Shown here: piece by piece, positions 58,493 through 59,940 of the stretch | How positions within the stretch are numbered: the first letter of the stretch is position 1 | Layout of the letters: each line of letters starts with the position of its first letter | Assembly: GCA_903857865.1 (NCBI GenBank) | Contig: CAIOGO010000020.1 | Coordinates: forward strand, 231,064-295,063 | Origin: an uncultured bacterium | GTDB taxonomy: Bacteria; Bipolaricaulota; Bipolaricaulia; UBA7950; UBA9294 | Reading direction: 5' to 3' | DNA length: 64,000 nucleotides | Position numbers and translations under genes: made by a program | The notes under the pieces: model-generated | What the model was told of the DNA's origin: nothing | What the model saw: the letters and a program-made list of their open reading frames with translations, nothing else | Databases searched by the model: none

Positions 58493-58586
58493 AATCGGGG
58501 GACACATACCTATTTCCCGGCTGCTGCCCGCCGTACATGGCACTCCTCCGAGCGGGCCACAGAATTGAGGTATGTGTCCCCCGATT
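58493..58586. repeat. 94-base palindromic (REP/MITE-like) element
   Basis: A perfect 19-bp inverted repeat AATCGGGGGACACATACCT (58493-58511) and its complement (58568-58586), with a nested 6-bp stem GCCCGC/GCGGGC (58526-58531, 58552-58557). The outer arm resembles the GGGGACACATACCT-type ends linked to REP-associated tyrosine transposases, but no transposase is in the window. Confidence 0.8.
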
Positions 58587-58611: not shown

Positions 58612-58822
58612 CCAACTCTTCCCTGCCCGATAAACGTGCGAGATCGTCGCCAAAGTACGCTCACTGATTGGCAAGCAACGCTCATCCCGAGCAGGTTGTG
58701 ATGCCGAGATGGATGAGCTTCGTACCGATATCGATGTCCTCGTTTGCTTCCTGTACGGAACCAGCGAGTAACTGTCGCCAGGGCGCCCAACTCTCCTTTG
58801 CCCGATAAACGCGGAGACGCCT
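58612..58822 (+). repeat. Imperfect direct repeat around GCCCGATAAACG
   Basis: CCAACTCTtccctGCCCGATAAACG continuing to GAGAtcgtCGCC (from 58612), and CCAACTCTcctttGCCCGATAAACG continuing to GAGACGCC (from 58788). The interval 58424-59008 contains no gene I can support; a minus-strand frame across it shows no domain. Function unknown. Confidence 0.55.
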
Positions 58823-59008: not shown

Positions 59009-59036
59009 TTGACTTCTACCCCGTTTCGGGTATACT
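59009..59036 (+). promoter_or_regulatory. Strong promoter-like sequence with no gene downstream on its strand
   Basis: TTGACT (59009-59014) and TATACT (59031-59036), spacer 16, the closest match to a sigma-70 consensus in the island. Transcription would run into the folded segment at 59044-59127. Confidence 0.65.
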
Positions 59037-59042
59037 GCGATA

Positions 59043-59130
59043 GACGCAGGCAAGCGCGGGATGAATCGCTGGCCGCCAGCAAGGCGACAGCGCGAAAGCG
59101 TGGGATCCAGCGACCCGGGGCCTGCGTTAA
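59043..59130 (+). ncRNA. Candidate structured small RNA, class unknown
   Basis: The segment folds with nested, mutually compatible helices. P1: ACGCAGGC (59044-59051)/GCCTGCGT (59120-59127). P2a: CGGG (59057-59060)/CCCG (59114-59117). P2b: TCGCTGG (59066-59072)/CCAGCGA (59107-59113), with bulge ATGAA between P2a and P2b on one side only. Inside are two hairpins: CGCC-AGCAA-GGCG (59074-59086) and GCGC-GAAA-GCGT (59090-59101), the latter with a GNRA tetraloop. This is a three-way junction. A promoter lies just upstream. No protein on the plus strand fits. The ATGAATCGCTGG region reminded me of transposon guide RNAs (HEARO/omega type), but I cannot confirm this. No terminator T-run is seen. Confidence 0.5.
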
Positions 59131-59136
59131 TGTTTG

Positions 59137-59940
59137 CTACCAGAATCGCTCCATCCTGCCAGCGGTGCACTCTGCGTTGACGACAGCAAGCGCATCTCCG
59201 GGAACGATCTTGATTCCGTACGACTCGGCAGAGCCGTTGTGCTTGTACAGTATGGGACGAAGGATGTGAGCGTACCTCGCTTCTCTACTGCCGTAGGTGT
59301 CTGTCTCAAGCGCGTTCAACGTGGCTCCTGCCAAGGCATCCGCCAATTGCAGACCAGCCCAACTCACTGGTGATTCGACATGCACCTTGCTGGGATCCAT
59401 CTCAAGACTGGAGAACTCAATGCGGATGTCTTCTCCGGCTCCCTTCTTCGTCTTCAGGAGTGACAGATAATTCAGCAAGTTGGAGTACGACAGGTTCTTC
59501 CGTTTCGAGAACCACAGTTCGGCGCGTCCGTCTCCTTGTCCATCTACTCGGTTGTCCCGCGCCAGCCAGGAGACTCTTTCGAGAAGATACCGCACTGCGT
59601 AGAAGTACAAGACATCCCGCTCCCCAAAGGTAGCAGCGTCTTTCAGCGATGGCTTGTGCACGGCGACGCTGCACCCTCGCGCGCTCATCTCAGCTACGGT
59701 CTGAGCGTACAGCACCTTCTGGCCGTGCGGCAGCTTGCGCCAGTGGACGTGCGCGTCCTTCTCGCGATTCGTCGCTGTGCGGAACTCCCTAAGGCGGTTG
59801 ACACACTGACCATCATTGATTGCGCGCACTGCGAACGCGCTGAGCACAAACCACTCGGAGCTACCCTTCTGCGGATGAGGCAGGAAGGTGAAGCCTTCAT
59901 CACCAGATTCATCGATGTATACGCGATATGATGCGACCAT
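59137..59940 (-). CDS. DUF3800 domain protein
   Basis: A 267-aa protein of the DUF3800 family, thought to have an RNase H-like fold and frequent in defence and mobile regions. The N-terminal VYIDESGDEGF and the C-terminal SWAGLQLADALAGATLNAL hallmarks are both present, with HVHWRKLPHGQKVLYAQTV in between. The ATG at 59940 has no ribosome binding site, and TATAAT ends 7 bases before it, suggesting a leaderless mRNA. It closes the island on the right and is transcribed away from ssnA. Confidence 0.85.
   Translation of the reverse strand: MVASYRVYIDESGDEGFTFLPHPQKGSSEWFVLSAFAVRAINDGQCVNRLREFRTATNREKDAHVHWRKLPHGQKVLYAQTVAEMSARGCSVAVHKPSLKDAATFGERDVLYFYAVRYLLERVSWLARDNRVDGQGDGRAELWFSKRKNLSYSNLLNYLSLLKTKKGAGEDIRIEFSSLEMDPSKVHVESPVSWAGLQLADALAGATLNALETDTYGSREARYAHILRPILYKHNGSAESYGIKIVPGDALAVVNAECTAGRMERFW

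What the first reader, a model, noticed from the sequence alone, without database searches (positions are those of the whole stretch)
59009..59130. Orphan structured RNA with its own strong promoter inside the defence island
TTGACT-16-TATACT leads directly into about 84 bases that form an 8-bp closing stem, a bulged 4+7-bp helix and two inner hairpins, one with a GAAA tetraloop, all nested without conflict. No plus-strand protein is encoded and the segment ends where the opposite DUF3800 gene ends. Such a compact fold is unlikely by chance. It could be a regulatory RNA, the RNA of a toxin-antitoxin or RNA-guided system, or a remnant of a transposon guide RNA.
Basis: partly seen in the sequence, partly recalled or inferred. 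Interest (0 to 1): 0.75.

Follow-up and report, generated by a model that had tools for sequence, protein, structure and literature searches.

The report
DUF3800-VII RNA with its partner gene
The segment is a real small structured RNA with its own promoter, but it belongs to a catalogued family (Rfam DUF3800-VII) that travels with the neighbouring RNase-H-like DUF3800 gene; what the pair does is still unknown, and the likeliest reading is a nuclease held in check, or armed, by its private RNA.

Summary
Window 59045-59131(+) folds as described, carries an adjacent sigma-70-type promoter, and matches Rfam RF02967 (DUF3800-VII RNA) at 74.6 bits, twice the gathering score. It is not an orphan: it abuts, tail to tail, its usual partner, a complete DUF3800 gene (59137-59940, minus strand). 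Of 80 DUF3800 relatives fetched by protein, 74 have this RNA at the gene's 3' end, and three more have a divergent copy in the same place (two clear, one weak). All five helices covary: 25 of 29 pairs show compensatory changes. A promoter starts transcription at about the first base of the closing stem in most loci, leaving no room for a 5' guide. The protein is modelled confidently and resembles RNase HII. The pair moves as a two-part cassette, including on phages, proviruses and a conjugative plasmid. I favour an RNA-protein complex in which the RNA binds and restrains (less likely activates) the nuclease, by analogy with AbiF-RCd22; no experiment shows this. RNA-guided action is disfavoured. 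Verdict: a new member of a known RNA family of unknown function.

The parts
59009..59014 (+). -35 hexamer TTGACT of the RNA promoter
   Evidence: same position relative to P1 in most homologues
59045..59131 (+). DUF3800-VII RNA (Rfam RF02967)
   Evidence: 74.6 bits, full-length model 1-90; only copy in the genome
59044..59051 (+). P1, 5' strand (pairs with 59120-59127)
59055..59071 (+). P2, 5' strand: C59055, CGGG 59057-59060, internal loop, UCGCUG 59066-59071
59072..59088 (+). hairpin P2a (one C.A mismatch in this copy)
59091..59100 (+). hairpin P2b with GAAA tetraloop
59101..59107 (+). conserved unpaired element UGGGAUC in the three-way junction
   Evidence: G59103 and G59104 are invariant in 34 sequences, U59101, G59102 and A59105 nearly so
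59108..59118 (+). P2, 3' strand: CAGCGA 59108-59113, CCCG 59114-59117, G59118
59120..59127 (+). P1, 3' strand
59137..59940 (-). DUF3800 protein, 267 aa, RNase-HII-like fold; partner of the RNA

Best explanation
The segment is a DUF3800-VII RNA, the regular genomic partner of the DUF3800 gene that ends 5 nt away. A strong housekeeping-type promoter makes an RNA of about 85 nt whose 5' end is the first base of the closing stem. The RNA folds into a bulged stem and a three-way junction carrying the conserved unpaired UGGGAUC element and binds the RNase-HII-like DUF3800 protein. I propose that binding by the abundant RNA keeps the nuclease inactive, and that an insult such as phage takeover of transcription lowers the RNA or changes the complex and frees the nuclease. 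The pair would then work like an RNA antitoxin with a nuclease toxin. Shown here: family membership (about 0.97 sure), structure, promoter, partnership, predicted fold of the protein, mobility as a pair. Inferred: physical binding (about 0.8), inhibition rather than activation, nuclease activity, and a role in defence.
For: RF02967 at 74.6 bits and DUF3800 next door. RNA at the gene's 3' end in 74 of 80 protein-selected loci, plus divergent copies in L061, L065 and weakly L069. Genome searches made with the RNA alone gave 17 further loci: 11 have an intact DUF3800 abutting the RNA, 4 a split one or a C-terminal remnant. RNA and protein distances agree (Mantel r = 0.74, 0 of 5000 permutations). 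Covariation in all helices. Promoter fixed at P1. RNase HII is the best fold, Z 12.6, with D10, E11, E121 and D201 near-invariant. Two-part cassette on proviruses, a Rhizobium phage and a conjugative plasmid. A demonstrated analogue: AbiF-RCd22, where the adjacent RNA binds and neutralises the toxic protein (PMC12373285).
Against: No toxicity, binding or transcript data exist in what I could read. Unlike type III antitoxins and RCd22, the RNA is a separate, mostly convergent unit, not the leader of a shared transcript. The excess of 'protein lost, RNA kept' over 'RNA lost, protein kept' (about 5-8 against 1) is also what neutral decay of a gene ten times longer would give. Activation or scaffolding by the RNA fits the genomic evidence almost equally well. 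One RNase H carboxylate (the D105 position of RNase HII) has no obvious equivalent, so activity is not assured.
Confidence: 0.45

Rival explanations
1. The RNA is a required cofactor or scaffold: it activates the RNase-HII-like protein or places it on its substrate, as an effector complex without a guide.
For: Near-perfect co-occurrence and shared history; a protein without a complete RNA is almost never seen (L049 only); strongly conserved unpaired element in the junction.
Against: Intact RNAs are kept after the gene is lost (L107, L112, L118, L120, L121), though these could be recent remains.
Confidence: 0.33
2. The RNA is a guide RNA that directs the nuclease by base pairing to targets, like OMEGA or CRISPR RNAs.
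For: RNase H folds occur in guided nucleases; DUF3800 proteins accompany some Cas12a2 and type VI-F loci (PMC10910872; PMC12669027).
Against: The promoter places the 5' end at P1; unpaired variable stretches are at most about 6 nt; many copies end in a U-run or inside the partner's last codons.
Confidence: 0.05
3. The RNA mainly regulates its neighbour's mRNA as an antisense RNA to its 3' end.
For: Convergent and abutting or overlapping the stop codon in most loci.
Against: In L063, L064, L081 and L090 the RNA is on the same strand as the gene, yet keeps the same fold; antisense action would not need covarying stems.
Confidence: 0.1

Closest known systems
Rfam RF02967, DUF3800-VII RNA (one of the DUF3800 RNA classes described, to my knowledge, by Weinberg et al. 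2017; that paper was not readable here)
   Same: Full-length covariance-model match, same position beside a DUF3800 gene.
   Different: Nothing beyond ordinary sequence divergence.
AbiF-RCd22 of Clostridioides difficile (RNA motif RF03085)
   Same: Two-part, phage-associated system of a nuclease-like protein and a roughly 100-nt structured RNA with its own promoter.
   Different: Unrelated protein family (linked to ancestral Cas13); RNA lies upstream and is co-transcribed with the gene; binding and neutralisation are demonstrated there, not here.
Type III toxin-antitoxin systems (ToxIN kind)
   Same: Structured RNA paired with a putative nuclease.
   Different: No tandem RNA repeats, no shared operon, RNase-HII-like rather than ToxN-like protein (general knowledge for ToxIN).
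DUF3800 accessory proteins of V-A2 and VI-F CRISPR loci
   Same: Same Pfam domain, RNase H fold noted by the authors (PMC10910872, PMC12669027).
   Different: There the DUF3800 is joined to a TPR domain and lies beside a CRISPR effector; here it is a stand-alone 267-aa protein with a private RNA.

Membership tests
RF02967 DUF3800-VII RNA | Covariance-model score above the gathering threshold | tested here: met
   74.6 bits against 36.2
RF02967 DUF3800-VII RNA | Consensus P1, bulged P2, P2a and P2b supported by covariation | tested here: met
   91.9% of cells paired, 25 of 29 pairs with double changes, 0 of 500 shuffles
RF02967 DUF3800-VII RNA | Neighbouring DUF3800 gene | tested here: met
   (PF12686, 51.9 bits), 5 nt away
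DUF3800 (PF12686) | Pfam score above cut-off | tested here: met
   51.9 against 21
Type III toxin-antitoxin | Toxic protein neutralised by binding the RNA | not testable with these tools
   needs experiment
Type III toxin-antitoxin | Tandem-repeat RNA upstream of and co-transcribed with the toxin gene | tested here: not met
   single copy, separate promoter, convergent
RNA-guided nuclease (OMEGA/CRISPR kind) | Variable guide segment of about 15-20 nt | tested here: not met
   none at the 5' end or inside; a long 3' extension is not excluded where the U-run is missing
RNase HII | RNase H fold with D-E-x-G motif and two further carboxylates | tested here: inconclusive
   fold, D-E-x-G and D201 present; fourth carboxylate not located

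The most novel reading that the evidence does not exclude
DUF3800-VII RNA and its RNase-HII-like partner form a new type of mobile two-part RNA-protein defence or toxin-antitoxin system, in which a guide-free structured RNA sets the activity of an RNase H fold nuclease.
Probability: 0.4. Interest if true: 0.7.

Novelty: new member of a known kind. Interest (0 to 1): 0.3.

Why it matters
The DUF3800 RNAs are catalogued but, in the papers I could search, nobody has tested what they do. The locus adds a compact cassette with a confident protein model, a defined transcript start and clear residues to mutate, so a simple expression test could settle whether the RNA restrains or activates an RNase-H-like nuclease.

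Tried and rejected
Dimerisation through the GGAUCC palindrome: variants GGUUCC, GGAACC and GGACAC in homologues break self-complementarity. A conserved third gene: 135 flanking proteins share no family in more than 5 members; only scattered restriction-modification and DUF1016/PDC-S02 genes. Another RNA class beside the second DUF3800 gene of this genome (L082): no Rfam match at E up to 1. RNA in Mycobacterium phage Mask beside its DUF3800 relative: none of this class found. L111 was first counted as an orphan RNA, then found to abut a DUF3800 of another subfamily. The 'RNA survives loss of the protein' asymmetry as proof of an antitoxin: rejected, because target size alone predicts it. Sequence search of solved structures gave only spurious hits. 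Foldseek had no match at E below 0.001; the RNase HII call rests on a consistent block of top rows and Z about 12.

Full report
What is there. The window holds a promoter (TTGACT-16-TATACT, 59009-59036) followed by an RNA of about 87 nt. An Rfam scan names it: RF02967, DUF3800-VII RNA, 59045-59131(+), 74.6 bits against a gathering score of 36.2, E = 1.1e-13, over the full model. It is the only copy in the 2.2-Mb genome. The RNA alone folds at -43.6 kcal/mol, z = -3.4, with none of 200 shuffles as stable. The opposite gene, 59137-59940, is a complete 267-aa DUF3800 protein (PF12686, 51.9 bits), and its stop codon is 5 nt from the RNA's end.

Is it a real, conserved RNA? A protein-based scan gave 80 loci from many phyla. 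74 carry RF02967 at the 3' end of the gene: convergent in 71, same strand in three (L063, L064, L081). In 66 of the 72 of these loci with an undisrupted gene the gap between stop codon and RNA is -10 to +9 nt. Of the six without a match, two contigs end inside the gene (L057, L073); three have a divergent copy in the same convergent place, scored by my own model with filters off at 32.4, 27.1 and 15.2 bits (L061, L065, L069; the last is weak on its own); one (L049) keeps only what looks like the 3' strand. On 34 aligned RNAs, 91.9% of pair cells are standard, 25 of 29 pairs show double changes, and no shuffle of 500 reaches any of the five measures; sliding the partner by 1-3 columns collapses the signal. 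The structure used is close to Rfam's; the alignment was made by MAFFT without it.

Transcription. In 84 loci a TTGACA/TATAAT-like pair lies within 4 mismatches in 74 (28 expected from shuffles), and the -10 box ends 5-8 nt before P1 in 54 of those 74, whereas shuffles show no preferred distance. So the transcript very probably starts at the first base of P1, including in L063 and L064 where the RNA lies downstream of the gene on the same strand. The 3' end has a U-run in many copies but not in all; in the window it is UUAAU, and no terminator was called.

Reverse test. Searching genomes with the RNA family alone gave, apart from centres chosen for having it, 17 loci. Eleven have an intact DUF3800 gene abutting the RNA, four a split gene or a C-terminal remnant (L084, L107, L112, L118), two none (L120, L121). 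L111, one of the eleven, is notable: its DUF3800 belongs to another subfamily, sits among type I restriction-modification-like frames (my reading of the translations), and still ends beside a class VII RNA. The family is sporadic: 2 of 100 genomes in the window's phylum set, 4 of 399, 14 of 384 and 1 of 392 elsewhere, counting the centres.

The protein. AlphaFold2 gives pLDDT 94. The best solved structures are all RNase HII/H2/HIII (VIA-align Z 12.6 to 1eke, 172 residues, 3.8 A; Foldseek E 1.3e-3). Y8-G16 (YIDESGDEG) resembles the D-E-x-G motif of RNase HII (general knowledge); E121, R122, Q198, D201, Y223 and G242 are invariant in 55 sequences. Published work independently gives DUF3800 an RNase H fold with a catalytic rearrangement (PMC10910872; PMC12669027).

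Mobility. Viral contigs L088-L091, Rhizobium phage RHph_TM3_3_3 (L094) and a conjugative Cupriavidus plasmid (L093) carry the pair. L006 carries a tandem duplication of more than 1.6 kb that includes both parts (an assembly error is possible). Neighbours otherwise vary. RNA and protein distances correlate strongly, so the two have been inherited together.

How it works. Shown: the family, the fold, the promoter, the partnership. Inferred: an RNA-protein complex. Between restraint and activation the evidence here does not decide; I lean to restraint because a strong private promoter for the RNA suits a stoichiometric inhibitor and because AbiF-RCd22 is a demonstrated precedent for a phage-associated nuclease-like protein with an adjacent RNA (PMC12373285). 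A guide role is disfavoured by the transcript start and by the lack of any variable unpaired stretch.

Limits. The 2017 paper that I believe described the class was not held. Many loci are from metagenome bins, where frameshifts can be errors. PADLOC gives the DUF3800 only a weak match to a candidate defence family (PDC-M04A, E 2.8e-4).

Noticed in passing
L061:3847-3936(-), L065:3776-3869(-), L069:3777-3881(-): A divergent form of the RNA with a longer P2b, missed by Rfam's model, sits at the same place beside DUF3800 genes of alphaproteobacterial bins; a candidate sub-class.
   Followed up: partly
L111:1501-1587(-) and the L111 frame ending at 1499(+): A DUF3800 of a different subfamily, lying among type I restriction-modification-like frames, ends beside a class VII RNA.
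   Followed up: partly
L006:2587-5943: Tandem duplication of more than 1.6 kb that copies the DUF3800 gene and its RNA together.
   Followed up: partly
58493-58511 and 58568-58586: Perfect 19-nt inverted repeat AATCGGGGGACACATACCT with 56 nt between the arms, flanked by GTTAG/CTAAC; looks like a mobile-element end or hairpin; no other copy in the window.
   Followed up: partly
58612-58636 and 58787-58811: 25-nt direct repeat CCAACTCTTCCCTGCCCGATAAACG (88% alike) between the restriction gene and the RNA.
   Followed up: no
L095:3980-4714: Mycobacterium phage Mask carries a DUF3800 relative in its repressor-integrase region without a class VII RNA; the 168-nt gap downstream may hold another class.
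   Followed up: partly
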